From an uncultured Sphingorhabdus sp. (GTDB taxonomy: Bacteria > Pseudomonadota > Alphaproteobacteria > Sphingomonadales > Sphingomonadaceae): a DNA stretch of 37,623 nucleotides. The notes under the pieces were generated by a model. That model was not told the origin of the DNA, made no database searches, and was given only the letters and a program-made list of their open reading frames with translations. The stretch lies in the NCBI RefSeq assembly GCF_937872355.1, contig NZ_CALMSV010000063.1, forward strand, positions 1 to 37,623, written 5' to 3'. A program made the position numbers and the translations under genes. Below are positions 5,138 through 21,035 of the stretch, in pieces. Every line of letters starts with the position of its first letter. Positions within the stretch are counted from its first letter, which is position 1.

Positions 5138-5148
5138 GTCCGAATCCC

Positions 5149-5257
5149 TTCACAAACGTCTTTCCATTCGCTACAGTTTTGAAAGAGGATTTTGAAAGAC
5201 GCAATCATGCTGCGACAGGCAGCATTGATCAGTCTTTCAAAAACGACCGTTTGTGAA
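5149..5257. promoter_or_regulatory. Probable res site (nested inverted repeats) and control region of the transposon
   Basis: The gap between tnpA and the rightward operon holds concentric dyads: TTCACAAACG (5149-5158) with CGTTTGTGAA (5248-5257), TTTTGAAAGAC (5190-5200) with GTCTTTCAAAA (5232-5242), and ATGCTGC (5207-5213) with GCAGCAT (5219-5225). A further partial copy, TTTTGAAAGA, lies at 5177-5186. Several resolvase subsites between divergent genes are what a Tn3-family res site looks like. The promoters of both tnpA and the tnpR operon should lie here. Exact subsites I, II and III are not assigned. Confidence 0.7.
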
Positions 5258-5270
5258 TGCGGAGCTGGTT

Positions 5271-5672
5271 GTGGCGACTGAAGGCAGCTGTCTGTGCGGC
5301 GCAGTGCGATATGAAATCGATAGGCTGGCCAGCCCGATTGGATTTTGTCACTGTCTTACCTGTCAGAAGGCACATGCTGCCGCATCGGCGCCGACCGCGA
5401 GAGTTAGGCGCGAACATTTCCGTTGGCTGTTAGGGCGTGAGTCCGTTGCGGGCTACGAGTCCTCACCGGGCAAAATTCGTCATTTCTGCAAGCGTTGTGG
5501 GTCGCACATTGTCTCTGAGAAAAGTGGACTAGATGAATTTATTTTGCGCGTTGCGACACTCGACTCGGATCCTGGAATGCGACCGGTCGTCCATATCTGG
5601 ACCTCGCATGATGTGCCCTGGTTAGAGGAGGTGGACTTGCCGAAGTTAGCTGAAGGCTTTTCTTCAACATGA
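5271..5672 (+). CDS. GFA/CENP-V family zinc protein (first copy)
   Basis: A small protein of the GFA family, named after glutathione-dependent formaldehyde-activating enzyme, though most members have unknown reactions. Zinc-ligand cysteines are in CLCGAVRYE, in CHCLTCQKAHAA and in FCKRCGSHI, the full pattern of the fold. I chose the GTG at 5271 because GGAG (5261-5264) precedes it and the product then begins just before the usual GSCLCG start. A longer in-frame GTG at 5253 has no ribosome binding site and lies in the outer res repeat. The stop overlaps the tnpR start (ATGA at 5669-5672), so it is the first gene of a coupled operon. The substrate is unknown. Confidence 0.82.
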   Translation: MATEGSCLCGAVRYEIDRLASPIGFCHCLTCQKAHAAASAPTARVRREHFRWLLGRESVAGYESSPGKIRHFCKRCGSHIVSEKSGLDEFILRVATLDSDPGMRPVVHIWTSHDVPWLEEVDLPKLAEGFSST

Positions 5673-6247
5673 ACTCCCCACCATTTTTGATCGGCTACGC
5701 CCGCATCTCCAAAGGTGATAACCAAAGCACGGCCATGCAGCTACGTGCTCTCAAGGAGGCTGGGTGCACGCGGGTCTTTGAAGAGGCGGCCAGCGGTGGG
5801 CGCTGGGATAGGCCTGAATTGCACCGGATGCTCGACCAGCTCCGCAAAGGCGATGTCATTGTTGTCTGGAAACTGGACCGGCTATCCCGATCGCTCAAAG
5901 ATCTGCTGCATCTGCTCGACCGGATCGAAGGTGCCAATGCCGGGTTTCGTTCGCTCACCGAAAGCATCGACACGACCACTCCGGCAGGCCGGATGATGAT
6001 GCAGATGGTTGGCAGTTTCGCAGAATTCGAGCGTGCGATGATACGTGAGCGGACCAAGGCAGGTCTCGACCAAGCCCGTTCGGAAGGCCGAATTGGCGGT
6101 CGCCGCCCCAAGCTCAACGCCAAACAGCGTGCGGAGATTGCCGAAAGCGTGATCTCGGGCCGCAAATCTGCCGCTGAAATGGCACGTATTTTCGGCGTGA
6201 GCCAGCCCACCGTATCACGGATTGTCGCACTGGTGCGCCATGGCTGA
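5669..6247 (+). CDS. tnpR: Serine resolvase TnpR
   Basis: 192 residues. It resolves Tn3 cointegrates by recombination at res. The N-terminal catalytic domain has GYARISKGDNQSTAMQ, with the nucleophile serine expected in ARIS, then VWKLDRLSRSLKDLL and the E-helix region MVGSFAEFERAMIRERTKAGL. The C-terminal end has a helix-turn-helix (SAAEMARIFGVSQPTVSRIV). Start ATG overlaps the previous stop by four bases, and its own stop overlaps the following GNAT start (6240) by eight bases. Having tnpR as the second gene of a passenger operon is unusual, since it is more often a stand-alone gene next to res. Confidence 0.95.
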   Translation: MNSPPFLIGYARISKGDNQSTAMQLRALKEAGCTRVFEEAASGGRWDRPELHRMLDQLRKGDVIVVWKLDRLSRSLKDLLHLLDRIEGANAGFRSLTESIDTTTPAGRMMMQMVGSFAEFERAMIRERTKAGLDQARSEGRIGGRRPKLNAKQRAEIAESVISGRKSAAEMARIFGVSQPTVSRIVALVRHG

Positions 6248-8515: not shown

Positions 8516-8953
8516 GTAGCGGTCCGGGAAGGTCCGCGGCTGACTGCCATTCAGCGCATCTTCCTCGACGCGCAAACCGCGTCTTACCGCATGAAGCTGA
8601 TGCTCGGCAGGCCCGCGCGCGGCGCCTGGCAGGGGGGAGGGGCGGGGCAGGGGACGCTCGCACTTGCCGAGGGCTTCGAAACGGCGCGGGCCTTCACGAT
8701 CCTCAACGAGATACCCTGCTGGGCCACGATGGGCGCGCGCCGCTTCGATCAAATCCAGTTGCCATCATCGATCGAGCGCCTGATCCTCGCGATCGACAAT
8801 GATGCGGAAGGGCGGCGCGGGGCTATCAAAGCGGAAGAGTGCTATGCGCGTCCGGGGCTTTCGATCGAGCGCATGCCCCCTAAGGCCGGCTTCAAGGATT
8901 GGGCCAAGATTCTGGAGACTGGTGAGCGGCGTTGTCTCAAGCCACCGCTCTGA
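8516..8953 (+). pseudogene. Toprim-domain primase, C-terminal remnant
   Basis: An open frame entering from the transposon edge (VAVREGPRLTAIQRIF) and stopping at 8951-8953. It contains a Toprim fold: the first glutamate in LALAEGFETARAF and the acidic pair in LILAIDNDAEGRRGA, followed by PPKAGFKDWAKIL. This is the C-terminal part of the DnaG-like primase commonly carried by conjugative plasmids, which would make primers for the transferred strand. The N-terminal zinc and primase regions are missing because the Tn3 element interrupts the gene, and they are not found left of the transposon. An internal ATG at 8591 could start a short product, but it would lack most of the enzyme. Confidence 0.8.
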
Positions 8954-10537: not shown

Positions 10538-10599
10538 GGAGAGGGAAGGGGGATCTGGGCTGAGGCTGCCGACGGGGCAGTCAGTCCGGAGACCCCATC
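10538..10599 (+). promoter_or_regulatory. Structured leader of the strawberry-notch gene (purine tract, hairpin, RBS)
   Basis: Purine tract GGAGAGGGAAGGGGGA (10538-10553), hairpin with CTGCC (10566-10570) pairing to GGCAG (10576-10580) and an outer CTG/CAG, then GGAGACCCC (10588-10596) before ATG 10600. The same order recurs before four other backbone genes. Confidence 0.5.
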
Positions 10600-13500
10600 A
10601 TGTCCGATCTATTCGACGCGCCGATCAATGCCGAAATCCGTGCGGCCGTCCTCATCGCCACCCACCTGAAATCCGGTGGCCCGCTCTCCCGGGCCGACCT
10701 CAATACGGCGATGACCGAAGCCTTCCATGGCACCGACGCCGATGGCCTCTGGACCCAGCGCCAGAGTTTCGAGCTCCTCGAACTCGCGCTCGTTCACCAC
10801 CTCCAGTCCGCACCCTATCCGCTGCGCGTTCTCGACGATGCGCATGCCGCTTGCGATCTTCTCGACCGCTTGCCGACGCAGACCGTCCGCAGCGAGAGCC
10901 AGATCGAATGGCAGCAATTCTCGACGCCGGTCGATCTTGCGGCCATCGCGGTCCTCCTCGCGAACATCCAGGGTGACGACGTCATCCTCGAGCCGAGCGC
11001 CGGCAACGGCCTTCTGGTCGCCCAGTGCGGCGCCCACGCAGAACTCCAGCTCAACGAATATGCCCCCGAACGCCGCGCCCGGCTGGTCCACGCGTTTCCC
11101 GGCGCCAAGGTAACCGGGCATGACGGTGCCGCGATCAATTCCACGCTGGCCAATGCGGCAAGACCGACATTGATCCTGATGAACCCGCCATTTTCGCGGT
11201 CCGTGGGCCTGGGCGCGGACGCCCATGCAGCCGTCCGCCACCTCCAGGCAGCTCTTCGGCGCCTCAGCCCGGGCGGTCGCCTCGTCGCGATTATGCCCGA
11301 CTGGTTCGGCCCCAACGCACGCATGCGCGACCTCTTCGAGACCAGCTTGCGCGACGTCCAGCTCCGTACCTCCGTCCGTCTAGAAAAATGCTATCTGAAA
11401 CATGGCACCTCGATCGCCGTCCGCCTCTACGTCATCGACAAGGTGCCCGGCGGTGCGATCCCGGCCACAATCCAGCGGTCTTCCATCCGGGAGCTGATCG
11501 GTGCCCTGGCGATACCCGCGCGCGCCACGCTGGTGATGGCGCCGGCGGCACCCCCGCGCCGGTCGGCAAACCCTTCGCTGTTCCGTGCCATGAAGAGCCG
11601 CCCGCCAAGGCCACGGCCCTTTCATGCGCCCATACGCAACAATGTCCTGCCGGTCGCCTATTCGTCGCTCGCAACGCCTGCCCCGTTGCTCGAACAGGTG
11701 GGTGTCTATCTCCCGTATCGACCGAGCCGCATCGTATTCGACGCCGCTGGCGAGCATCCGACCGCGCTCGTCGAATCCGTCGCGATGGGCTCGATCGCCG
11801 CGCCGGTCCCCGACTATGTGCCGCACCTGCCCGAGCGGTCGGTCAGCGAGCGCTTGCTCTCCGCGTCACAGCTCGAAACGGTCGTCTATGCGGGCCACGC
11901 CTGGTCGCTATACCTTCCGGGCACATTCAGTCCCAGCAAGGAAGGCGTCGGCCTCGAGGCGGCTGAAGACGGGCGCGCTTATCGAAAGGGCTATTTCCTC
12001 GGCGACGGTACCGGTGCGGGCAAGGGCCGCCAGATCGCCGCCTGCATCCTCGACAGCTGGCTCCAGGGACGCCGCCGCAACATCTGGATCTCGAAGAACG
12101 AGGCGCTACTCGAAGACGCGCGGCGCGACTGGACCGCGCTCGGGGGCCTTGCGGCCGACATCCAGCCCCTGGCGAACTGGACGATCGACAAACCCATCCC
12201 CCTCGAACAGGGCGTCCTGTTCGTCACCTATCCAACGCTCCGATCCGTCCGCGGCGACCATAGCCGGCTCCAACAAATCCTCGACTGGGCCGGCCCGGAC
12301 TTCGAAGGGATCATCGCCTTCGACGAAGCCCATGAGATGGGCGGGGTCGCCGGCGGCGAAGGGGCGCTCGGCCGGAAGGAGGGATCGCAACAAGGCGTTT
12401 GCGGTGTCCTCCTCCAGAACCATCTGCCGGGCGCGCGCGTCCTCTATGCCTCGGCCACTGGCGCATCGGACGTCAACAATCTCGCTTACGCGGTCCGGCT
12501 TGGCCTCTGGGGGCCGGGAACGGCCTTTGACGATCGCGAACAGTTCATCGCGGGCATTCGCAAGGGCGGCATCGCGGCCATGGAACTCGTCGCCCGCGAC
12601 CTGAAGGCGCTCGGCCTCTACACCTCTCGGGCGCTCAGCTTCGCCGGCGTCGAATATGAGATCCTGCGCCACGCGCTGACCACCGAGCAGATTGCGATCT
12701 ACGATAGCTATGCTGACGCCTGGTCGATCATCCACCGCAACATGGAACGGGCGCTCGAACTGACCGCCATTGTCGATGGCCTCGAGAACGCCACGCTCAA
12801 CAGCGGCGCCAAGGCCGCGGCGCGCTCCCGCTTCGAATCCGCAAAGCAGCGCTTCTTCGGCCAGCTTCTTCTCAGCATGAAGCTGCCGACAGTGATCGCG
12901 GCGGTCCGTCACCACCTCGGCGAGGGCAAATCGGTCGTTCTCCAGCTCGTCACGACCGCGGAATCGATCCTCAATCGCCGGCTCGCCGAACTGAGCCCCG
13001 AGGAACGGGCCGACCTCGAAATCGATCTCTCGCCGCGCGAATATGTGATCGACTATCTGGAGCGCGCCTTTCCCACGCGCCAGATGCGGATCTTTACCGA
13101 CGACACGGGTACGCCGCGCTCGGTCCCCATGCTCGACGATGAAGGACAGCCCGTCTACAATCCCGAAGCGGAAACCGCCCGCGCCGAACTCATCGAGCGG
13201 CTTTGCGCGCTGCCGCCGATCATGTCGGCGCTCGACGCACTCCTCGGACATTTCGGGCACGACAATGTCGCCGAGGTGACGGGGCGCACCAAGCGGCTCG
13301 TCACCGCGGGCGATGGCCGCCAGAAGCTCGAATCCCGCTCGGCGCGCACCAGCCAGGCCGAGGCCGCCGCCTTTATGGCCGGGCGCAAGCGCGTCCTGAT
13401 CTTCTCGGACGCGGGCGGCACGGGACGGAGCTACCACGCTTCGCTCGACGCGGTGAACCAGGAGCAACGTGTCCATCTGCTGCTCGAGCCGGGCTGGCGT

Positions 13501-14820
13501 GCCGATCGCGCGATCCAGGGACTGGGTCGGACGCACCGGACGCACCAGGCGTCGACCCCGCTGTTCCGGCCCGTCACGACCGATTGCAAGGGCGAGCTCC
13601 GCTTCACCAGCACGATCGCGCGGCGCCTCGACACCCTTGGGGCGCTGACGCGCGGTCAGCGCCAGACCGGAGGGCAGGGGCTTTTCGATCCCGCCGATAA
13701 TCTCCAGAGCGAATATGCGTGCAGCGCTCTTCTGAGCTGGTTCCACCTCCTCGCCGCCGGAAAGCTCGCGAGTACCAATTTGGACGACTTCCAGAATCGG
13801 ACCGGCCTCGAACTCGTCGACAAGGACGGCGTCATGAAGGACGAGATGCCGCCGATCCAGCGCTGGCTGAACCGGATCCTGGCTCTACCGATCGCGTTGC
13901 AGAATAACATCTTCGAGGAATTCCTCTCGCTCACCGAGACCCGTGTGGCGGCGGCGCGGGACGCGGGTCGCCTCGATGTCGGCGTGGAAACCATCCTTGT
14001 CGATACGGCGCGGCTGGTCGACGATGTCGTTCTGCGCACCGATCCCGGGACGGGGGCAACCTCGCACCTCCTGACGATCGAGATCGAGCGCCGCCGCAAT
14101 CCCGTCTCGCTTGAGCGGATCATGCGGATTGCCGAGGGCGACCAGAGCGCGGCGTTCATGATCAACCGGAAGTCGGGCAAGGCGGCGCTCCGGACGCAGG
14201 CCCGCTCGCTCATGGAGGAGAAGGAAGGCACGCCGATCCCGCGGGTCGAACTCATGCGTCCGTCGCGCAACGACTATATGCGTTCGGCCGACCTGTTCGA
14301 ATCCTCATGGGAGGAGATCGACCGGGCAAGCTTTATCGCCCTCTGGACGCAGGAAGCCGAAACCTTGCGGCAAAAGGTCGACACCGAGACGCTTCGCCTC
14401 GCGACCGGGCTGCTCCTGCCGATATGGTCTGCGCTGCCGAGCGACCATCTCGCGGTCAACCGGATCGTCGATGGGGAAGGGCGGTCCTGGCTCGGGCGCC
14501 TCGTCTTCGACGATCATGTGCTTAGGCTTTTCTCGGCGCTCGGAATCGATCGCAAGGAGACCCTGCCTGCTTCCGCGATCGCCAAGGCGGTTGCTGCCGG
14601 GCGCAGTATCGACGTCACCCATCCGTTTCCGCTCACGATCAACAGGAGCATCGTCAACGGCTCCCAGCGTATCGAGCTCGTCGGCTTTCCAGCCGACCGG
14701 CTTGCATGGCTGAAGGCGGCGGGGTGTTTCACCGAAGTGATCCAGTATCGCACGCGGGTCTTCGTCCCCGTAGCGCTGGCCGAGGCTATTCTGGAGACTG
14801 TCCTGGAGGCGACTACATGA
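10600..14820 (+). CDS. Strawberry-notch-type helicase fused to a DNA methyltransferase domain
   Basis: 1406 residues. The N-terminal domain is an N6-adenine-type methylase: motif I VILEPSAGNGLLVAQ at about 128-141 and catalytic NPPF in LILMNPPFS at about 190-197. The middle is the strawberry-notch AAA-like helicase: LGDGTGAGKGRQIA at about 466-479 (P-loop variant of the family) and the DEAH-like FDEAHEMGG at about 573. The C-terminal helicase half has DAGGTGRSYHASLDA and GLGRTHRTHQ (motif VI). In bacteria such proteins are known almost only from mobile elements, with suspected roles in DNA protection or transfer that remain unproven. It stands alone on the forward strand with its own leader and no frameshift. 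Confidence 0.9.
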   Translation: MSDLFDAPINAEIRAAVLIATHLKSGGPLSRADLNTAMTEAFHGTDADGLWTQRQSFELLELALVHHLQSAPYPLRVLDDAHAACDLLDRLPTQTVRSESQIEWQQFSTPVDLAAIAVLLANIQGDDVILEPSAGNGLLVAQCGAHAELQLNEYAPERRARLVHAFPGAKVTGHDGAAINSTLANAARPTLILMNPPFSRSVGLGADAHAAVRHLQAALRRLSPGGRLVAIMPDWFGPNARMRDLFETSLRDVQLRTSVRLEKCYLKHGTSIAVRLYVIDKVPGGAIPATIQRSSIRELIGALAIPARATLVMAPAAPPRRSANPSLFRAMKSRPPRPRPFHAPIRNNVLPVAYSSLATPAPLLEQVGVYLPYRPSRIVFDAAGEHPTALVESVAMGSIAAPVPDYVPHLPERSVSERLLSASQLETVVYAGHAWSLYLPGTFSPSKEGVGLEAAEDGRAYRKGYFLGDGTGAGKGRQIAACILDSWLQGRRRNIWISKNEALLEDARRDWTALGGLAADIQPLANWTIDKPIPLEQGVLFVTYPTLRSVRGDHSRLQQILDWAGPDFEGIIAFDEAHEMGGVAGGEGALGRKEGSQQGVCGVLLQNHLPGARVLYASATGASDVNNLAYAVRLGLWGPGTAFDDREQFIAGIRKGGIAAMELVARDLKALGLYTSRALSFAGVEYEILRHALTTEQIAIYDSYADAWSIIHRNMERALELTAIVDGLENATLNSGAKAAARSRFESAKQRFFGQLLLSMKLPTVIAAVRHHLGEGKSVVLQLVTTAESILNRRLAELSPEERADLEIDLSPREYVIDYLERAFPTRQMRIFTDDTGTPRSVPMLDDEGQPVYNPEAETARAELIERLCALPPIMSALDALLGHFGHDNVAEVTGRTKRLVTAGDGRQKLESRSARTSQAEAAAFMAGRKRVLIFSDAGGTGRSYHASLDAVNQEQRVHLLLEPGWRADRAIQGLGRTHRTHQASTPLFRPVTTDCKGELRFTSTIARRLDTLGALTRGQRQTGGQGLFDPADNLQSEYACSALLSWFHLLAAGKLASTNLDDFQNRTGLELVDKDGVMKDEMPPIQRWLNRILALPIALQNNIFEEFLSLTETRVAAARDAGRLDVGVETILVDTARLVDDVVLRTDPGTGATSHLLTIEIERRRNPVSLERIMRIAEGDQSAAFMINRKSGKAALRTQARSLMEEKEGTPIPRVELMRPSRNDYMRSADLFESSWEEIDRASFIALWTQEAETLRQKVDTETLRLATGLLLPIWSALPSDHLAVNRIVDGEGRSWLGRLVFDDHVLRLFSALGIDRKETLPASAIAKAVAAGRSIDVTHPFPLTINRSIVNGSQRIELVGFPADRLAWLKAAGCFTEVIQYRTRVFVPVALAEAILETVLEATT

Positions 14821-14836
14821 CCGCCGCGGAGGTTCG

Positions 14837-15139
14837 CTAGGCTTCGTCCATCTCGGAGAGCCAATCCTCGCGTGCATGACGGACGCGCAATATCAGCACG
14901 TTGTCATTCGGCCCGAGTTCGTAGACGATGAGATGAGCTTTGTAGGGATAGATGCGGACGGGCGACCGGATTTCCTCACGCTCGCGCGCCGCGCGGGGAT
15001 ATTCTACAAGAAAATTGAAGGTCGCCTCTAGCCCATCGTGATATCCGTCGGCCTGTGCCGGCCCGAACCTTTCGAGCCCGTATAGGTAAACCGCGACCAG
15101 ATCATCGCTGGCAGCACGCGTCAGCTGATACGATGGCAC
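14837..15139 (-). CDS. parE: ParE/RelE-superfamily toxin
   Basis: 100 residues from a GTG two bases after the antitoxin stop. The sequence YQLTRAASDDLVAVYLYGLERFG, then REREEIRSPVRIYPYKAHLIVYEL and VLILRVRHAREDW, is the standard ParE/RelE fold with its C-terminal basic strand. ParE toxins poison DNA gyrase, while RelE relatives cut mRNA. Pairing with a ParD-type antitoxin favours ParE. It converges with the strawberry-notch gene, whose stop is 17 bp away. The pair serves for plasmid or island retention. Confidence 0.88.
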   Translation of the reverse strand: MPSYQLTRAASDDLVAVYLYGLERFGPAQADGYHDGLEATFNFLVEYPRAAREREEIRSPVRIYPYKAHLIVYELGPNDNVLILRVRHAREDWLSEMDEA

Positions 15140-15141
15140 GC

Positions 15142-15387
15142 CTATGACTGCGCGCGTGCTTGTTCGAGCGCTCGAGTGCGGATGTCCGCCATGGATTCAG
15201 TGCTGACTCCGCTGCTCCGCGCCTCGTCAACCAACCGCTGCATATTGGCAATCTTTCCCGCCCGTTCCTGATCGCGACGGATAAGATCTCGCACATAATC
15301 GCTAGCATTGCTGTAGCGCCCCGTGTCGGCTTGGCCTTCGACCCAAAGCTTCATCGGATCCGGCAAAGAGATGTTCATTGTCGCCAT
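15142..15387 (-). CDS. parD: ParD-family antitoxin
   Basis: 81 residues starting MATMNISLPDPMKLWVEGQA, a ribbon-helix-helix protein typical of ParD (NISLPDPMKLWV as the strand, YSNASDYVRDLIRRDQ as the helices), with a charged tail (MADIRTRALEQARAQS) that would bind the toxin. The start at 15387 is chosen because AAAAGGAG lies ten bases upstream. A longer in-frame version from 15450 would run through the promoter. It neutralises the neighbouring ParE and represses the operon from the dyad just upstream. Confidence 0.88.
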   Translation of the reverse strand: MATMNISLPDPMKLWVEGQADTGRYSNASDYVRDLIRRDQERAGKIANMQRLVDEARSSGVSTESMADIRTRALEQARAQS

Positions 15388-15407
15388 GGGCGCTTCGCTC
15401 CTTTTGG

Positions 15408-15441
15408 CAATCTTTATAAGAAAATTGGCAAAGATTGTCAA
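15408..15441 (-). promoter_or_regulatory. parDE promoter with overlapping operator dyad
   Basis: On the reverse strand TTGACA (15441-15436), a 17-bp spacer and TATAAA (15418-15413) form a near-consensus promoter. The perfect inverted repeat CAATCTTT (15408-15415) and AAAGATTG (15430-15437) overlaps both boxes, so ParD bound there would block the polymerase. Confidence 0.8.
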
Positions 15442-15548
15442 GTTGCGCACCGCCCGGAATTACCGGATCAGTTCTGATTGGGCTAGCGAGGACTCATCAC
15501 TCTGAGGCCTCAAACGGCTGACTGAATTCGTGGTCCGCAGGGGCCGGC

Positions 15549-15770
15549 TCAGTTCGCAGGCGCAAATTGCCGGTCGAGGAGACCCTGAGCCGCCCGCTCT
15601 CCGGCACTGGGCGGCATCACGGCCGGAAGGGCGACGGTGACGATCCAGAAGGCCATCATTCCGAGAAACACGCCGCTCGCGATCTTCAACACATCCTGCA
15701 TGATACCGACATCCTCCCCGACCCCGACCAGATAATCTCTCATGGCCCGGCGGCCTCGCGGCCGGGACAA
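15549..15770 (-). CDS. Small predicted membrane protein, unknown
   Basis: Up to 73 residues; an internal ATG at 15743 (MRDYLVGVGEDVGIMQDVL) is an alternative start and may be better, since the preceding residues are Arg-rich and neither start has a good ribosome binding site. One hydrophobic segment, IASGVFLGMMAFWIVTVALP, is long enough to cross the membrane, followed by a short charged tail ending DRQFAPAN. No motif is recognised. The 15451-15548 gap beside it holds nothing apparent. It may be real, as it keeps a clean amphipathic-plus-membrane layout, but a chance frame is not excluded. Confidence 0.45.
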   Translation of the reverse strand: MSRPRGRRAMRDYLVGVGEDVGIMQDVLKIASGVFLGMMAFWIVTVALPAVMPPSAGERAAQGLLDRQFAPAN

Positions 15771-15911
15771 AACACCGTCAGCCTAATCGCCGGGCGCGGC
15801 ATGATCGAGCCCATATCCGGTCCAGAATGGCAATCGAGATAGCCGGCCCGCGCCGAGATGGTGCTGCCGCAGACGGTCCGGTCGGCGGCTCGAGGCGTCC
15901 CGGGCGCCACG

Positions 15912-15974
15912 AAAAGGGGAGGGGGAGGGGAGCCGGTGTCCGGGCTGTTCCGGACGCCAGAAGGACTTCATCCG
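15912..15974 (+). promoter_or_regulatory. Structured leader of the ParB-like gene
   Basis: Purine tract AAAAGGGGAGGGGGAGGGGA (15912-15931), then a 9-bp hairpin GGTGTCCGG (15935-15943) with CCGGACGCC (15950-15958) including one G-T pair, then AAGGA (15961-15965) before ATG 15975. Same layout as at 10538, but the hairpin sequence differs. Confidence 0.5.
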
Positions 15975-16490
15975 ATGACCATTACGGTAAAGCTTTCGAA
16001 GCTTTCGCTTTCTCCGATCAACGTACGATCCCGCCCCGAAGAGCTCCTCGAGATTCCGCAGCTGGCCGCCGATATCGAGGCGCGCGGCATCCTCCAGAAC
16101 CTGCTGGTCAATCCGGTCAAGAAGCCGCGCGGCTCGTTCGAGGTGTTCGACGGCGGTCGCCGCCTTCGCGCTCTGATGAAGCTCGTCCAGGACGGTGTCA
16201 TCGTTGCCGAGAGCTATGACGTCCCCGTCAAGGTTCTGACCGGCGACGAAGCGACCCTATCGGAGACGTCGACCGCGGCGAACTTCCATCAATTGAAGAT
16301 GACGCCTGCGGAGGAATGCCGGGCGTTCCAATATTTCATCGGTCTCAAGGGCGATATCGACGGCGTCGCCAAGCGTCTCGGCGTGACCCGCCGTTTCGTG
16401 GAAGGGCGCCTACGCCTCGCTACCCTGGCCGAACCGATCTTTGATGCTCTGAGCGAGGGCGGGATCACGCTCGATATCGCCAAGGCCTAA
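15975..16490 (+). pseudogene. ParB/Spo0J-like protein, 5' part only
   Basis: 171 residues that stop early. Visible are the N-terminal ParB-like nuclease/CTPase region (SPINVRSRPEELLEIPQLAADIEARGILQNLLV, and FEVFDGGRRLRALMKLV, where GGRRLRAL matches the GxRRxxA motif) and the HTH region (MTPAEECRAFQYFIGLKGDIDGVAKRLGVTRRFVEGRLRLATL). The chain ends LDIAKA-stop, where relatives on such plasmids continue for several hundred residues. Directly downstream another frame resumes an unrelated-looking but protein-like tail, so I infer a deletion that joined this gene out of frame to later sequence. DNA binding might survive; the C-terminal part is lost. Confidence 0.75.
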
Positions 16491-16710
16491 CCTCTATGCC
16501 GCCGTCAGCCGCGAGACCCTGATGCGCGAGATTGCCGAATTCTGCCGCGAATATTGGAGCGAGATCGCCAATGATCGCGATTCGGACACGCTCGATGACG
16601 AGGACATCGCGCGCATCTACTTCGAGCTCCACCCCGACGAGTCTCTCCAGACCGACCGCGTCGCGATCGATGCGCCACCCGCCGCTCTCGTCACGGGAGA
16701 ACAGCCATGA
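16486..16710 (+). pseudogene. C-terminal remnant of an unidentified gene joined behind the ParB fragment
   Basis: In the +1 frame relative to the ParB-like gene, an uninterrupted acidic reading starts at the fusion point (NLYAAVSRETLMREIAEFC) and continues with REYWSEIANDRDSDTLDDEDIARIYFELHP to a stop overlapping the next ATG (ATGA at 16707-16710). The composition is plainly protein-like and it has the ATGA coupling used elsewhere in this element. ATG 16522 could start a 62-residue product. Most simply it is the 3' end of the gene that once followed or formed the end of the ParB-like gene. Confidence 0.5.
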
Positions 16711-17222
16711 ACGCCCGTTCGGCCCGGGCCGAGGTTCGCAATCCGGTGCTCGCCTTGCCCGCGTTCCGCGCGTTGCAGTCGCTCCTGCCGGAACAGCGCG
16801 TGCTTCTCGCCGCGCTGTTGCTCGACCTTCAGAGCGACGCGCGCGATCGCGCCGCCCGAAGCTGGGCAAGCCGCAAGACCATGATTGCCGCCTACTGGTC
16901 CGCCGTCGCCGTCTATTCCGGGCATCTCGCCCGCTGCCTTGGCGAACGCAGAGGTCGCCGTCCCCGCGCGCGCTTCGAGCTTGTCCAGGAGGGCTTTCCC
17001 GACCTCGTCGTGACGGGATGGGAGGCGGCTTCCACCACATACTCCGTACGCCGCGAAGAATGCGGTCTCGGCGCGCGAGACTTTCCCAGAGGCACGGTCA
17101 AGCTTGGCGGGATCGCGATCGCGCACGTCAGCTATAAGGGCCGATTTTGGCCCCGCCACGAATGGGAGCCGAACGATATGCCCATCTATGACAATCGCGG
17201 TCCTTCTCGCGATTGCGGTTGA
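16707..17222 (+). CDS. Hypothetical protein of the mobile backbone
   Basis: 171 residues. GGGAGAA lies eight bases before the ATG, and the start overlaps the upstream stop. The N-terminal half is helical (FRALQSLLPEQRVLLAALLLDLQSDARDRAARSW, then KTMIAAYWSAVAVYSGHLARCLG), and the second half is richer in strands (DLVVTGWEAASTTYSVRREECG, KLGGIAIAHVSYKGRFWPRHEW). No enzyme motif or membrane segment is recognised. It sits between the deleted ParB region and a new leader, so it was probably the last gene of the ParB operon. Confidence 0.65.
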   Translation: MNARSARAEVRNPVLALPAFRALQSLLPEQRVLLAALLLDLQSDARDRAARSWASRKTMIAAYWSAVAVYSGHLARCLGERRGRRPRARFELVQEGFPDLVVTGWEAASTTYSVRREECGLGARDFPRGTVKLGGIAIAHVSYKGRFWPRHEWEPNDMPIYDNRGPSRDCG

Positions 17223-17227
17223 GCGGC

Positions 17228-17285
17228 AAGGAGAGGGGGAGGGAAGGGGCGAGCGGATGTCCGCTCGAGAGCCGGAGACCCCCTC
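17228..17285 (+). promoter_or_regulatory. Structured leader of the 17286 gene
   Basis: Purine tract at 17228-17249, perfect 8-bp hairpin CGAGCGGA (17250-17257) with TCCGCTCG (17260-17267), then GGAGACC (17274-17280) before ATG 17286. The tract and the ribosome binding site match the 10538 leader, while the stem sequence is different. Confidence 0.5.
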
Positions 17286-17930
17286 ATGAGCTATGATCTC
17301 GCCTTTCGCTTCCAGCAGGCCCTCGACCCCAGTGCGCTTATGGATATCGCCGCCTCGCTTCACGCGATCGAGGCGGCGATCACGGACTGTCGCAACGCCG
17401 GGATCGCCACTGAAAGCGACCCTGCCATCATACTTCTGTGCCGGCACCTGGCTACGGTGTGCGCGGACCGCGGCGACGACGCGCTTTTGCGACAGGCTTG
17501 CATGGAACGGATCGGTGATCTCCGGTCAAAGCCCGCGCTCAGGACCTTGGCGCTTCGCGGCGTCGCCTATGATGAACCGGCAAAGCGCCTGTTTCACACC
17601 GAGGGACGCGCCGCGCTGCAGGTGCTCGCCAAAGCGCTGGCGCTCGGTGCCGGCAGTTTCGACGTCCGATCCAACAAGGCCGGCCCCGCGGTCTCGGGAG
17701 AGGTGACCCTTCATGCCGAGATGCTGTGGGTCCAGCTCTCGCTTGGGCCTTTCGGTCCGGGCCGCGAGATCTGCTTCCGCCGGGTCCAGGGCCGAGGCGA
17801 CCATATCGGGGAGCGCAACCATTGGGGATCGATGAGCGAGCTGCTGGCTCCAGACCGCTTCGCCGAACGCATCCGCCGCGAGCTGCGCCTGCCATCCACC
17901 GTCCCCGCCGAACCCCGTCTCGTCGCCTAA
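17286..17930 (+). CDS. Hypothetical protein of the mobile backbone
   Basis: 214 residues starting MSYDLAFRFQQALDPSALMD, preceded by a GGAGACC ribosome binding site. The product looks globular with alternating helices and strands. The second half holds VSGEVTLHAEMLWVQLSLGPFGPGREICFRRVQGRGDH, which reads like a beta-rich domain, and it ends with a basic helix (FAERIRRELRLP). I recognise no family or catalytic pattern. The next gene begins 10 bp downstream on the same strand, so the two are probably co-transcribed. Confidence 0.7.
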   Translation: MSYDLAFRFQQALDPSALMDIAASLHAIEAAITDCRNAGIATESDPAIILLCRHLATVCADRGDDALLRQACMERIGDLRSKPALRTLALRGVAYDEPAKRLFHTEGRAALQVLAKALALGAGSFDVRSNKAGPAVSGEVTLHAEMLWVQLSLGPFGPGREICFRRVQGRGDHIGERNHWGSMSELLAPDRFAERIRRELRLPSTVPAEPRLVA

Positions 17931-17940
17931 ATCTCCTGCT

Positions 17941-19307
17941 ATGACCGCAGCCTTCGATCCCGCCGATGCCGCCGCATGGATCGCGCACGGCCGTCCGCCC
18001 GCGCTTGCCCGATCCCTTGCCGATGTCTGGCGCCGTCACCCCGATCTCCCGGCCTCGTCCCCTGCAGATGCGCGCCTAGCAAGGATGCGCGACCGCGCCG
18101 CCGCTTTGCGTCCCGTGATCGACGCGATGCGAACCGTCACCAAGGCCGAGCGCCACGTGCGCAATTTCGCCTTCACCGCCGCGCAGTTCGGCGAGGGCAA
18201 GGCCGGTCCCCGCGAAGCGGCGATCCTGCGGGGGCGCGACCTTCACGGTTATGACTGGGACCTTGCGGTCCGTTATGCCTCCGGCTGGTATGCGGCCGAC
18301 GCCGGATGGGACCCAGAAGTGCACAGGCCGGGCAACCGATCCGCGGCGAACGCCGCTTACGACCGGGGATTTGGCGACGGCGGCGGCAACCGAGACGATC
18401 CTTTCGACACCGCCCGCCGCGCATTGTCCGCGACCGGTGTGCCAGGGCCCCGGCGCCCCCCGGCACCGGCAAGGCCGCGCCCCAGTGACTGGCCGCAACC
18501 GACCGATGCCGCGCTGCCAGTGCGATGGGCCCGCCGTCTTCTCATCTTCGGTGCCCCCGAGATCGGCATTGCTGGTGATCGCGCCAAAACACCTATCTCT
18601 TCGGCGGTGCTGCTCCCGGCCCTCGTCGCAGCCGCCGGTCACGAAGACGCTCTCGTCATCGTCATCTCGGGCGACGGCTTCATCCCCTTGCCCGACGCAA
18701 TGGCCGGTTTAACGCCGCTCAGCGCTGGAGCGTTCGCCAAGCTGGCTGCCGACACGGGGCAGGCCGCGAACTTGCGCGGGCTCCTGGAAGGCCGCGAGTT
18801 CGATGATATCCTCGTCGCCGCCCAGGGACCATATCTCGCGCTACTCGACGCGCACGCGTCGGCAATCCCGCTGTGCCGGACGATGGCCCGGACCCGAAAC
18901 AGCGTCCTGTTGCAGAAAGCACAGTTCCGCACCTGGATCGGACGCGGCATCGCCGCCGGACAGAGTGTCGGCGCCGGCCATATCCGCTGGGGCAAGGCGA
19001 TCAAGGGACTGACCGGCCGCCTGGGCGAATTCACGGCGCGCTATACTGGCAAAGTACCCGGCCGCGGCCACAGGATCATTGTCGAGGTGGCCGCTTCCGC
19101 GCCGGCAAGCGGATATGCGACAGCCACGGGCGAACCCCTCGAATGGGAATGGTTCATTTCCAACCGCGCGCAACTTCGCGCCGCCATGGCTGCCCGCCTC
19201 TCCGGCACGAGGAATATGACGTCTTGCAGCTCCTCCTCTGCGACCCCGCCGGCGTCTATCCCGATGAACCCGAATGCGCCCCGGGCTTCGATGTTCCGCT
19301 TGCCTGA
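17941..19307 (+). pseudogene. Hypothetical protein with a single-base frameshift near its 3' end
   Basis: Starts MTAAFDPADAAAWIAHGRPP and reads well to about 19203 (420 residues), including LLIFGAPEIGIAGDRAKTP and EDALVIVISGDGFIPLP. After AARLSG the frame degenerates (TRNMTSCSSSSATPPAS) and runs into the next gene. The -1 neighbouring frame instead gives HEEYDVLQLLLCDPAGVYP and a stop at 19305-19307, just before the next leader. Restoring one C in GGCAC at about 19204 (SGHEEYD) would give a normal protein of about 455 residues. So this is a one-base loss in the gene, or a sequencing error. The family is unknown to me. Confidence 0.7.
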
Positions 19308-19337
19308 CGCCGGGGGATCCGTGGCCCGCGACGAGCC

Positions 19338-19399
19338 GGGAAAGGGAAGGGGGTTCGATGGGGATGCGGCCGATGAGGCCGGGCCCAGGAGATCCCAGC
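19338..19399 (+). promoter_or_regulatory. Structured leader of the 19400 gene
   Basis: Purine tract GGGAAAGGGAAGGGGG (19338-19353), short hairpin CGGCC (19367-19371) with GGCCG (19377-19381) around GATGA, then AGGAGATCCC before ATG 19400. Fourth example of the shared leader plan. Confidence 0.45.
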
Positions 19400-19861
19400 A
19401 TGGCAACTGTCCTTTCCTTCGACACCGCGGCCGACAAATGGTCGGTCCCCATCGGTTCCCATTCGCGAGGCGAGCTCAGTCTCCAGCTCGAGCGGCTGAT
19501 GGCGGGACGCCTCATCTTCCCTTCGAAAGAGGGCCTAAGCGCGGGCGATCTGTTGCGCCTGCTGGAGGGCGCCTGTTTTTCGGCTAGCCCGGACAGCGAT
19601 GCTGACAGCTGGGAAACTCAGAACAATCGCTTCCTTGCCGATGCGCGTGAAATCGCAACCAGCCTGCTCGAAGGCGAAGATGCCGCGCTCATCGAGAGGA
19701 CCCGCGCCATTCTTTCCGATCAAGTCCAATGGTTCGTGCCCGAAGGCCGCCGGCTCTTCGCCTCGATCGATCGCGCGAGGCTCGACGTCCGGTTCGAGCC
19801 GGCCCTGTCCGACCCTCCTGAGGCCGTCGTCCCGAACCCGGCGGATGACCGCAATCCATGA
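19400..19861 (+). CDS. Hypothetical protein of the mobile backbone
   Basis: 153 residues from ATG 19400 (MATVLSFDTAADKWSVPIGS), chosen because AGGAGA lies 6-7 bases upstream. Longer in-frame starts would overlap the hairpin and the preceding gene. The product is acidic; helical stretches are SLQLERLMAGRLIF, GDLLRLLEGACF and NNRFLADAREIATSLLEGEDAALIERTRAIL, and the tail is Pro-rich. No family recognised. Its stop overlaps the next ATG (ATGA at 19858-19861), so it heads a three-gene coupled operon. Confidence 0.68.
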   Translation: MATVLSFDTAADKWSVPIGSHSRGELSLQLERLMAGRLIFPSKEGLSAGDLLRLLEGACFSASPDSDADSWETQNNRFLADAREIATSLLEGEDAALIERTRAILSDQVQWFVPEGRRLFASIDRARLDVRFEPALSDPPEAVVPNPADDRNP

Positions 19862-20049
19862 GGGTCATTCGACCAGCCGACTCCGCGGATCGGGCTCGGA
19901 TGGCTGCGGCTCTTGACCATTTGCGCGCCGCGCGCGATCTCTTGCGCCAATGCGGATCGCCTCGTGCCGTCGCGGCCGCGCGCCGGGCGCTCGCCAGCGC
20001 TTCGGGCGCTGCCCGTCATCTCGATCACCGCGTTGCGAGGAGCGAATGA
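19858..20049 (+). CDS. Small hypothetical protein, coupled
   Basis: 63 residues starting MRVIRPADSADRARMAAALD, Ala- and Arg-rich and predicted helical throughout (HLRAARDLLRQCG, AAARRALASASGAARHL). The ATGA overlap on both sides (19858 and 20046) is the main evidence that it is translated. It could bind nucleic acid because of its basic helices, but nothing specific is visible. Confidence 0.6.
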   Translation: MRVIRPADSADRARMAAALDHLRAARDLLRQCGSPRAVAAARRALASASGAARHLDHRVARSE

Positions 20050-20378
20050 TGAGCCGCCATATTCTCACCCCGAGGCCGGACCAGCCGGAAATTGTCGCTA
20101 TCGTTGTTGGTTGGGATCGCCCTCTTCAGACCTTCTTCGCGCAGGTCTTCGCCCGTACCGAGGCCGAGCCGGATGAGGGCGAGGCGACCATCTGGGTCGG
20201 AACCGAGCCCGGCGAACTCGCAACGCCCGAGGCCGCGATCGCTGTCATCGCCCTCTTCGCCGACGTGCCGGACACGCTGGCGTCGCTGCTTGATGCAGAG
20301 ATGCGAGCAGGCCGCGCTTCCGCCGATGGCGCCTTGCAGTCCGAAATGAAACGACGCCTCTTCGGGTCGATTCACTGA
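20046..20378 (+). CDS. Hypothetical protein, last of the three-gene operon
   Basis: 110 residues from ATG 20046 (MMSRHILTPRPDQPEIVAIV), which overlaps the previous stop. A longer frame from 19950 would run inside the upstream gene. The protein looks like a small alpha/beta domain: IVAIVVGWDRPLQTFFAQVF, then TIWVGTEPGELATPEAAIAVIALF and PDTLASLLDAEMRAGRA. The first part reads like proteins that convert a number into a time or dose, but I do not claim this. Family not recognised. Confidence 0.68.
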   Translation: MMSRHILTPRPDQPEIVAIVVGWDRPLQTFFAQVFARTEAEPDEGEATIWVGTEPGELATPEAAIAVIALFADVPDTLASLLDAEMRAGRASADGALQSEMKRRLFGSIH

Positions 20379-20446
20379 TTTCGGAACGGCACGTACCTCG
20401 ATCTATCAGAACTCTATGTTTGAATCCCCCGGACCGGCATGTTCAG

Positions 20447-20551
20447 ATGGCCTTATCCCGCAGCGCGCCGAAGGTGGAGCACCGCATACGGCGCGACGAA
20501 ATTGTCGCACTTATCCAGCTCTGGCGGCCTGCCCACACCGAGGCCGCCTGA
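20447..20551 (+). CDS. Possible 34-residue protein
   Basis: A short frame, MALSRSAPKVEHRIRRDEIV with continuation ALIQLWRPAHTEAA, that is charged and helical and ends just before the promoter-like region of the next small gene. There is no clear ribosome binding site, so it is only a candidate. Confidence 0.22.
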   Translation: MALSRSAPKVEHRIRRDEIVALIQLWRPAHTEAA

Positions 20552-20596
20552 CACCCTTTCCTCGCCGCGGGTCGGACAATCTGCTATAACGATTCG

Positions 20597-20794
20597 ATGG
20601 CCGAGATCGATCCTCATACGCTGCGTGTTGCTGCCTCGCTCGTCCGGTCGCGCATCGCCGGCCTTACCCGCGACACGCGCATGGACGGCCTGCAACGCCT
20701 GGGTGCCCATCGCACGCTGACGCAACTCGCGATCGATCTCGAAGTGTCGGCCGACCATGCCGGTCCGCCAAAGCGCCGGTCCCGCCCTAGGTAG
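20597..20794 (+). CDS. Small hypothetical protein
   Basis: 65 residues, MAEIDPHTLRVAASLVRSRI followed by AGLTRDTRMDGLQRLGAHRTLTQLAIDLEVSADHAG and a basic tail. The regular spacing of hydrophobic residues suggests a helical domain. A TATAAC box lies at 20583-20588, too close to the start for a standard leader, and no strong ribosome binding site is visible. Real translation is plausible but not certain. 20795-20965 holds no other gene. Confidence 0.4.
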   Translation: MAEIDPHTLRVAASLVRSRIAGLTRDTRMDGLQRLGAHRTLTQLAIDLEVSADHAGPPKRRSRPR

Positions 20795-20965
20795 ATCGGC
20801 GTCCGCATTTCGCCTGCCGATGCCAGCGTCGGTAGGCGCCTTCCTAGCCATCCATGATCGCTCTCTGGACCTCTGATTGGAGGTCCAACAGCCCCTTGGG
20901 CATCCCGAGGCCGCGTTCGCGTGCCCCGGAAATGGGCGCTCGCGCGCCCGCTCGGCCGAACGGCC

Positions 20966-21035
20966 GAGGAGGAAAGGAGGAGCTTGGAGGGTGGTCCGGA
21001 CATGAGGTCCGGGGCCATCATCCAGGAGACCTTCC
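20966..21035 (+). promoter_or_regulatory. Structured leader of the DUF736 gene
   Basis: Purine tract at 20966-20991, hairpin CCGGAC (20996-21001) with GTCCGG (21007-21012) around ATGAG, then CAGGAGACC before ATG 21036. Fifth example of the shared leader plan. Confidence 0.5.

What the first reader, a model, noticed from the sequence alone, without database searches (positions are those of the whole stretch)
10538..21035. A shared leader plan (purine tract, variable hairpin, GGAGACC RBS) before five backbone genes
At 10538, 15912, 17228, 19338 and 20966 the same order occurs within about 60-70 bp of a start: a purine run of the GGGAAGGGGG type, a hairpin whose stem sequence differs each time while pairing is kept (CTGCC/GGCAG, GGTGTCCGG/CCGGACGCC, CGAGCGGA/TCCGCTCG, CGGCC/GGCCG, CCGGAC/GTCCGG), and a GGAGACC-like ribosome binding site. 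Kept pairing with changed sequence suggests RNA structure under selection. The purine tract could bind ribosomal protein, Hfq-like protein or a pyrimidine-rich small RNA and so control all five genes together.
Basis: partly seen in the sequence, partly recalled or inferred. Interest (0 to 1): 0.75.

Follow-up and report, generated by a model that had tools for sequence, protein, structure and literature searches.

The report
Shared RNA leaders on sphingomonad plasmids
Five genes in this plasmid-like segment, and genes of more than a dozen families on related sphingomonad plasmids, start with the same kind of short leader (a G-rich stretch, a hairpin whose pairing is kept while its letters change, then the ribosome-binding site), which likely acts in the messenger RNA and is predicted to meter how readily ribosomes start translating these plasmid upkeep and anti-restriction genes.

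Summary
GGAGACC is at three of five sites; the ParB leader lacks GGAG. The same plan precedes orthologues and other plasmid genes. A covariance model built from one gene's leaders finds the four other window sites (DUF736 weakly). Stems stay paired beyond shuffled and slid controls, with G-U rather than A-C oppositions (44 to 5). No Rfam match. At 29 of 34 checked plasmid places the model ends exactly at an annotated start.
Best reading: a new family of structured leaders acting on translation initiation. The tract's 3' G-run is predicted to clamp the spacer before AUG, with the Shine-Dalgarno site between clamp and hairpin; its 5' part could dock ribosomes. Clamp support is moderate, the sign of the effect is unproven, no partner is identified. 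Quadruplexes and SuhB got no support. Single matches before ardC-type genes in eight genomes argue against a plasmid-encoded regulator.

The parts
10538..10599 (+). Leader of the strawberry-notch-type helicase gene: tract 10538-10553, stem 10566-10570/10576-10580, outer stem reaching the GG of the SD, SD 10588-10594, C-rich spacer
   Evidence: 32.8 bits; 44.1 bits
10600..14820 (+). Strawberry-notch-type helicase gene (1406 aa; AAA_34, Helicase_C_4)
15911..15974 (+). Leader of the ParB-like gene: tract 15911-15932, stem 15935-15943/15950-15958; no GGAG, AAGGAC as RBS
   Evidence: 26.2 bits; 48.2 bits; DNA similarity to several plasmid ParB genes begins about here
15975..16490 (+). ParB-like gene, open frame of only 171 aa here (cluster median 687 aa)
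17228..17285 (+). Leader of an unnamed plasmid gene: tract 17228-17249, stem 17250-17256/17261-17267, SD 17274-17280, spacer CCCCCTC 17279-17285 complementary to GAGGGGG 17233-17239
   Evidence: (72.4 bits, in the training set); tract begins 5 nt after the stop codon of ORF 16707-17222
17286..17930 (+). Unnamed plasmid protein, 214 aa, no Pfam family; matched in 119 plasmid records, most of them sphingomonads
19338..19399 (+). Leader of an unnamed gene: tract 19338-19353, stem 19367-19371/19377-19381, SD GGAG 19388, GGGGUU/GAUCCC clamp
   Evidence: 23.3 bits; 38.6 bits
19400..19861 (+). Unnamed gene; open frame of 153 aa here, 403 aa behind a near-identical leader in L017
20966..21035 (+). Leader of the DUF736 gene: tract 20966-20982 (no run of four G), stem 20996-21001/21007-21012, SD 21025-21031
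   Evidence: 18.2 bits, E 0.2; 30.5 bits
21036..21545 (+). DUF736 protein gene, 169 aa

Best explanation
The five leaders belong to one family of structured leaders of sphingomonad plasmids and related elements, which likely act in the messenger RNA and are predicted to meter translation initiation by folding the ribosome-binding site into a hairpin. Shown: a purine tract with a consensus near GGGRAGGGGG, a hairpin kept through changes on both sides in many of the gene families, then SD and AUG, before genes of many families. Predicted by folding and supported by a swap test of moderate strength: the 3' G-run of the tract pairs with the pyrimidine spacer between SD and AUG, so that the SD lies between this clamp and the hairpin, its first two G usually paired. 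Inferred: the 5' part of the tract, which is SD-like, docks a 30S subunit (standby), and the ribosome-binding site opens when the docked or an upstream terminating ribosome melts the clamp, so that plasmid backbone and anti-restriction genes are set to related initiation rates.
For: Orthologous leaders (26 rows): stem cells paired 89.6% against 79.8% shuffled (0 of 500) and 26-44% when slid; cells with two-sided changes 17 against 6.5 shuffled (0 of 500). Model-fitted set of 126 distinct leaders: 86.9% against 64.6%; 117 against 36 such cells (both 0 of 500; the alignment leans to the structure). Stems of 63 leaders hold 44 G-U against 5 A-C; composition predicts 1.26:1. 136 strict composites on the + strand of 77 loci, 0 on the -; 1 and 4 with pyrimidine tracts. 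Clamp: Watson-Crick runs between tract and spacer are longer in a leader's own pair than in swapped pairs for the nine hairpin families (68 leaders, 4.35 against 4.04, P 0.0008; within family P 0.0011). SD first two G mean unpaired 0.37 and 0.36, last five spacer bases 0.29 (62 leaders). Nine ardC-type leaders: consensus fold pairs GGGAG with CUCCC and UCCUGA with the SD-bearing UCAGGA. Native tracts pair with the 16S 3' tail better than shuffled tracts (-14.9 against -14.3 kcal/mol, P 1e-6). Of 34 model matches on four plasmids that I compared with annotation, 29 end exactly at an annotated start and 5 lie near one.
Against: The number of pairs with a two-sided change does not exceed shuffles (3 of 7, 114 of 500 shuffles reach it; 7 of 7, 166 of 500); only the cell counts and pairing do. 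Removing the tract in silico makes the SD less, not more, accessible (0.55 to 0.37), so the fold may present rather than hide it. The clamp shows no specific pairing in the other 35 leaders (P 0.53); over all 103 leaders the within-family test is borderline (P 0.05), and the count of runs of 6 or more in hairpin families is not significant within families (P 0.11). Tract-shuffled folds keep most of the clamp (3.1 against 2.6 pairs, P 0.02). The ardC set shows no two-sided changes. Nine of 34 checked leaders have no same-strand gene directly upstream, so coupling cannot be the general release. No expression data.
Confidence: 0.55

Rival explanations
1. The tract is the recognition site of a trans-acting factor (a pyrimidine-rich small RNA, or an RNA-binding protein) that switches the whole gene set; hairpin and clamp only present it.
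For: Tract letters are more ordered than 'purine-rich'; families without a strong hairpin keep the tract; a CCUCCUCCC loop pairs native tracts slightly better than shuffled (P 0.004), as carried by rhizobial alpha-r14 sRNAs (PMC10746234, passages); in Sphingopyxis the sRNA SuhB represses thnR through its 5' UTR with Hfq (PMC6563040, passages), and G000 has a suhB-like match below the cut-off.
Against: The suhB-like loop pairs native tracts no better than shuffled (P 0.64). CCTCCTCCC is not in excess in G000 (20 matches, 25 for the reversed pattern; contexts not examined). Eight genomes whose single match is an ardC-type leader show no plasmid set in that search, whose strict filters can lose weak matches; a plasmid-coded factor thus looks unlikely. 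The 17286 protein has no clear fold match.
Confidence: 0.25
2. The element works as single-stranded DNA of the sense strand, as a conjugation-linked promoter or recombination site, not as RNA.
For: Leaders precede anti-restriction and ParB genes; F and ColIb-P9 use ssDNA promoters for such genes and pLS20-family plasmids have large structured upstream regions (PMC8708921, abstract and sections 3.3, 3.7, 4.1). G-T oppositions in folded sense-strand ssDNA could give the same bias as G-U in RNA.
Against: The element runs into SD and AUG and ends at the start codon; no -35/-10-like excess upstream (ssDNA promoters inside the hairpin were not scanned for).
Confidence: 0.1
3. The hairpin and G-tract stabilise the mRNA (5' barrier to ribonucleases) and have little to do with initiation.
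For: Hairpin near the 5' side of each gene and G-tract upstream of it.
Against: Pairing of the spacer next to AUG with the tract is not expected for a pure stabiliser; predicted G-quadruplexes, one way of blocking nucleases, are no commoner than in shuffled tracts.
Confidence: 0.1

Closest known systems
EGeRS1 upstream regions of establishment genes on pLS20-family plasmids (PMC8708921)
   Same: One structured upstream element repeated before several operons of a conjugative plasmid, among them ardC; no strong promoter found before ardC there; mechanism unknown there.
   Different: EGeRS1 is 400-600 bp, in Bacillus, multi-branched; here about 60-75 nt, ending at the start codon, with a G-rich tract. 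Sequences were not compared.
SD-sequestering structured leaders and ribosome standby sites (E. coli tisB; PMC7708055, abstract)
   Same: Structured ribosome-binding site with an upstream site where the 30S could dock.
   Different: tisB uses a single-stranded site about 100 nt upstream and a pseudoknot; here an SD-like tract lies next to the hairpin and is predicted to pair with the SD-AUG spacer. Standby is not shown here.
Candidate structured RNAs of the 2010 comparative-genomics set, e.g. radC, Bacillus-plasmid, msiK (PMC2864571, passages)
   Same: Cis-regulatory RNA candidates found by comparative genomics; msiK has a predicted RBS in its basal pairing.
   Different: No Rfam family matches the window; here one plan serves more than a dozen plasmid gene families.

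Membership tests
Known Rfam families | Covariance-model match at E up to 1 | tested here: not met
   cmscan of the window, 4227 families, 0 matches
Cis-regulatory structured RNA leader (class, not a family) | Base pairing kept through changes among homologues, beyond shuffled and slid controls | tested here: met
   the count of pairs with two-sided changes alone does not exceed shuffles
Cis-regulatory structured RNA leader (class, not a family) | Change of expression when the structure is altered | not testable with these tools
   no experiment or expression data
SD-sequestering leader | SD or its spacer paired in the predicted fold | tested here: inconclusive
   SD GG and spacer mostly paired, SD paired in the ardC-type consensus, but tract removal lowers SD accessibility
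Ribosome standby site | 30S bound upstream of a structured RBS | not testable with these tools
   only indirect: native tracts pair the 16S tail a little better than shuffled tracts
SuhB (RF00519) target | Tract pairs with the suhB-like loop better than chance | tested here: not met
   -14.04 against -14.12 kcal/mol for shuffled tracts, P 0.64
RNA G-quadruplex | Tract predicted to form a quadruplex more often than shuffled | tested here: not met
   0.37 against 0.39 (103 tracts)
EGeRS1 | 400-600 bp conserved region with several inverted repeats | tested here: not met
   the conserved part is about 60-75 nt; sequence not compared

The most novel reading that the evidence does not exclude
A plasmid-wide translational regulon for establishment: ParB, helicase, ArdC, other anti-restriction and unnamed backbone genes all carry one self-contained RNA gate read by the host ribosome alone, so that a newly arrived plasmid sets the output of its whole starter kit without any regulator of its own, and host genes of that kind can join by keeping the leader.
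Probability: 0.3. Interest if true: 0.8.

Novelty: new variant of a known kind. Interest (0 to 1): 0.62.

Why it matters
How plasmids of non-enteric Gram-negative bacteria co-ordinate their establishment genes is, to my knowledge, little explored. A leader that can be found by a covariance model gives a searchable mark for such genes (also questioning some annotated start codons and pointing to unnamed genes), and offers a simple testable case of many genes sharing one translational gate. The carriers include pNL1, pSWIT01 and pTK1.

Full report
What is there. The window is a contig of a draft genome (G000, contig 63) with a conjugative-plasmid-type gene set: strawberry-notch-type helicase, ParB-like, DUF736, SSB, TrwB-type coupling protein and TrwC relaxase. 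Details differ from the finding: ParB has AAGGAC instead of GGAGACC, 19388 is GGAGATC, and the DUF736 tract lacks the G5 run.

More than chance. A strict composite is found 3 times on the + strand of the window, never on the other, and 0.013 times per dinucleotide-shuffled window (300 shuffles). In 77 loci (window, three plasmid stretches, 73 genome contigs found with the 17286 protein alignment; 1,286,494 bases) the same composite before a frame of 60 aa or more occurs 136 times on the + strand and 0 on the - strand; with a pyrimidine tract instead, 1 and 4. The + bias partly reflects that loci were oriented by one gene. A looser scan gave 262 leaders (254 on +), in 22 clusters of homologous proteins plus 25 singletons; some are spurious (cluster 6, annotated as a reverse transcriptase at its pNL1 member; in-gene GTG matches in cluster 5) and some clusters may be relatives of each other (4 and 8). 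For tests I kept the + strand, ATG, clusters of two or more, 40-95 nt: 218, and 103 after removing near-identical ones.

Which genes. Clusters include the 17286 protein (70 loci), ParB, DUF3768, DUF736, a HerA/DUF87-like ATPase, strawberry-notch helicase, ArdC (ArdcN plus MPTase-PolyVal), Antirestrict and DUF7007 proteins, and several without family. On whole plasmids model R2 finds 8 (pTK1), 8 (pNL1), 13 (pSWIT01) and 7 (a Qipengyuania plasmid) places at E up to 1e-3, 1 on a Mesorhizobium plasmid and 0 on pAt15955. I compared 34 of the 36 on the first four with annotation (counted by hand; the two others, on pTK1, were not looked up): 29 end exactly at an annotated CDS start, 5 within about 110 nt of one. 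In 10 of the 34 the preceding same-strand gene overlaps the match by 3 nt or ends at most 30 nt before it; 9 of 34 have no same-strand gene directly upstream. In the window the tract at 17228 begins 5 nt after a stop codon. In many listed plasmids DNA similarity starts just at the tracts (about 17228 and 15915).

Structure. For the 17286 orthologues (26 rows, four of them misaligned pNL1-type rows kept in the count) the 7-bp stem is paired in 89.6% of cells, 79.8% shuffled, 26-44% slid; 17 cells carry two-sided changes against 6.5 shuffled (0 of 500), while the number of pairs with such a change (3 of 7) is reached by 114 of 500 shuffles. A model from this one family (R1) gave 166 matches at E up to 0.5 in 57 of the sources then held, 165 on the + strand, all five window sites among them, one of which (17228) was in its training set. 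On 150 of them, 126 distinct, 86.9% of cells pair against 64.6% shuffled and 29-43% slid; 117 two-sided cells against 36 (0 of 500); pairs with such a change 7 of 7, reached by 166 of 500 shuffles; this alignment is fitted to the model. A separate stem finder on 68 hairpin-family leaders found stems in 63, with 44 G-U and 5 A-C oppositions; composition predicts 1.26:1 (P 3.5e-7), and shuffled segments give 17.6 to 11.6. On the two alignments the ratios are smaller: 14 to 4 and 57 to 16. That favours folding of the sense strand, in RNA or, not excluded, in ssDNA. Energy tests: 46 of 103 leaders have an inner hairpin with z below -2; nine protein clusters have medians of -1.7 or lower and the other eleven -0.9 or higher. 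So the tract is the commonest feature and the strong hairpin belongs to a subset; these nine, chosen by that value, are called hairpin families below.

Clamp. Folds often pair the 3' G-run of the tract with the spacer before AUG, e.g. GAGGGGG/CCCCCUC at 17233/17279, GGGGAUUU/AAAUCCCC in L037, GGGGGCGC/GCGCCCCC in L033. Since G-rich tracts pair with almost any pyrimidines, I swapped spacers among leaders and counted Watson-Crick runs only: own pairs win in the nine hairpin clusters (68 leaders; P 0.0008 overall, 0.0011 within clusters) and not in the others (35 leaders; P 0.53 and 0.99); over all 103 P is 0.0016 and 0.05. The duplex-energy version over all 103 is weaker (53 and 89 of 5000 permutations reach it). 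The support is moderate. Removing the tract in silico exposes the spacer (0.35 to 0.53) but buries the SD more (0.55 to 0.37), so whether the fold hides or presents the SD is open.

Distribution. R1 found nothing in 60 other genomes (strict filters), but the broader R2 finds 3 and 9 matches in two of them (G019, G029). I looked at ten matches of 75-76 nt: nine precede the same ArdC-type gene (Pfam run on one), six of them on contigs of 1.5 to 3.3 Mb and three on contigs of 0.30 to 0.42 Mb, with 94% identical leaders, whose consensus fold pairs GGGAG with CUCCC and UCCUGA with the SD-bearing UCAGGA, without two-sided changes. Eight of those nine genomes show one match only, which argues against a plasmid-encoded regulator, with the caveat of strict filters. 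Whether these genes lie in islands was not checked. In G000 the other matches are on contigs 109 (two), 122 and 150; of ten exact GGGAAGGGGG places in G000, I read eight and three (two in the window, one on contig 109) head a gene in this way.

Mechanism. Shown: a conserved structured leader ending at start codons. Predicted: clamp and SD pairing. Inferred: effect on initiation, docking of ribosomes at the tract (native tracts pair with the 16S tail a little better than shuffled, P 1e-6), metering of the gene set. SuhB and G-quadruplex readings got no support; a CCUCCUCCC-type sRNA loop pairs native tracts slightly better than shuffled (P 0.004), so an sRNA stays possible.

Known relatives. 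No Rfam family matches. The nearest idea is EGeRS1 of pLS20-family plasmids, a structured upstream region shared by establishment operons, mechanism unknown (PMC8708921: abstract and sections 3.3, 3.7, 4.1 read). Standby translation is known from tisB (PMC7708055: abstract read). I file the leader as a new family within the known kind of structured cis-acting leaders, unusual in serving so many gene families of one plasmid type.

Noticed in passing
window 15975-16490: The ParB-like open frame is 171 aa, while its cluster's median is 687 aa; the window's copy looks broken or carries an assembly error. Left as it is.
   Followed up: no
window 19400-19861 and 17941-19587: The 19400 frame is 153 aa against 403 aa in L017 behind a near-identical leader, and the 17941 frame runs past the next gene's start; possible further frame breaks.
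   Followed up: no
window 2183-6247: A 984-aa minus-strand frame that reads like a Tn3-type transposase and a resolvase-like frame at 5669-6247 (both by eye, not searched); nearby a short frame at 8591-8953 with a weak primase-like match below the cut-off.
   Followed up: partly
window 14837-15450: Two small minus-strand frames between helicase and ParB that look like a ParE/ParD-type toxin-antitoxin pair (by eye, not searched).
   Followed up: no
L118-L126: ArdC-type genes in nine genomes carry a 94% identical leader of this family; in eight of these genomes it is the only match.
   Followed up: partly
L097:2703-2789 and L097:1216-1307: A Mesorhizobium plasmid has tract-plus-hairpin leaders before ParB and a DUF932 gene, weaker than in sphingomonads (16.0 and 20.8 bits).
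   Followed up: partly
L014:19986 (pNL1), L015:12436 (pSWIT01), L096:4293 (Qipengyuania): The model's start codon differs from the annotated start; the leader may mark the true starts.
   Followed up: partly
L016, about 1501-1582: A suhB-like sRNA match in G000 (37.8 bits, below the RF00519 cut-off of 41).
   Followed up: partly
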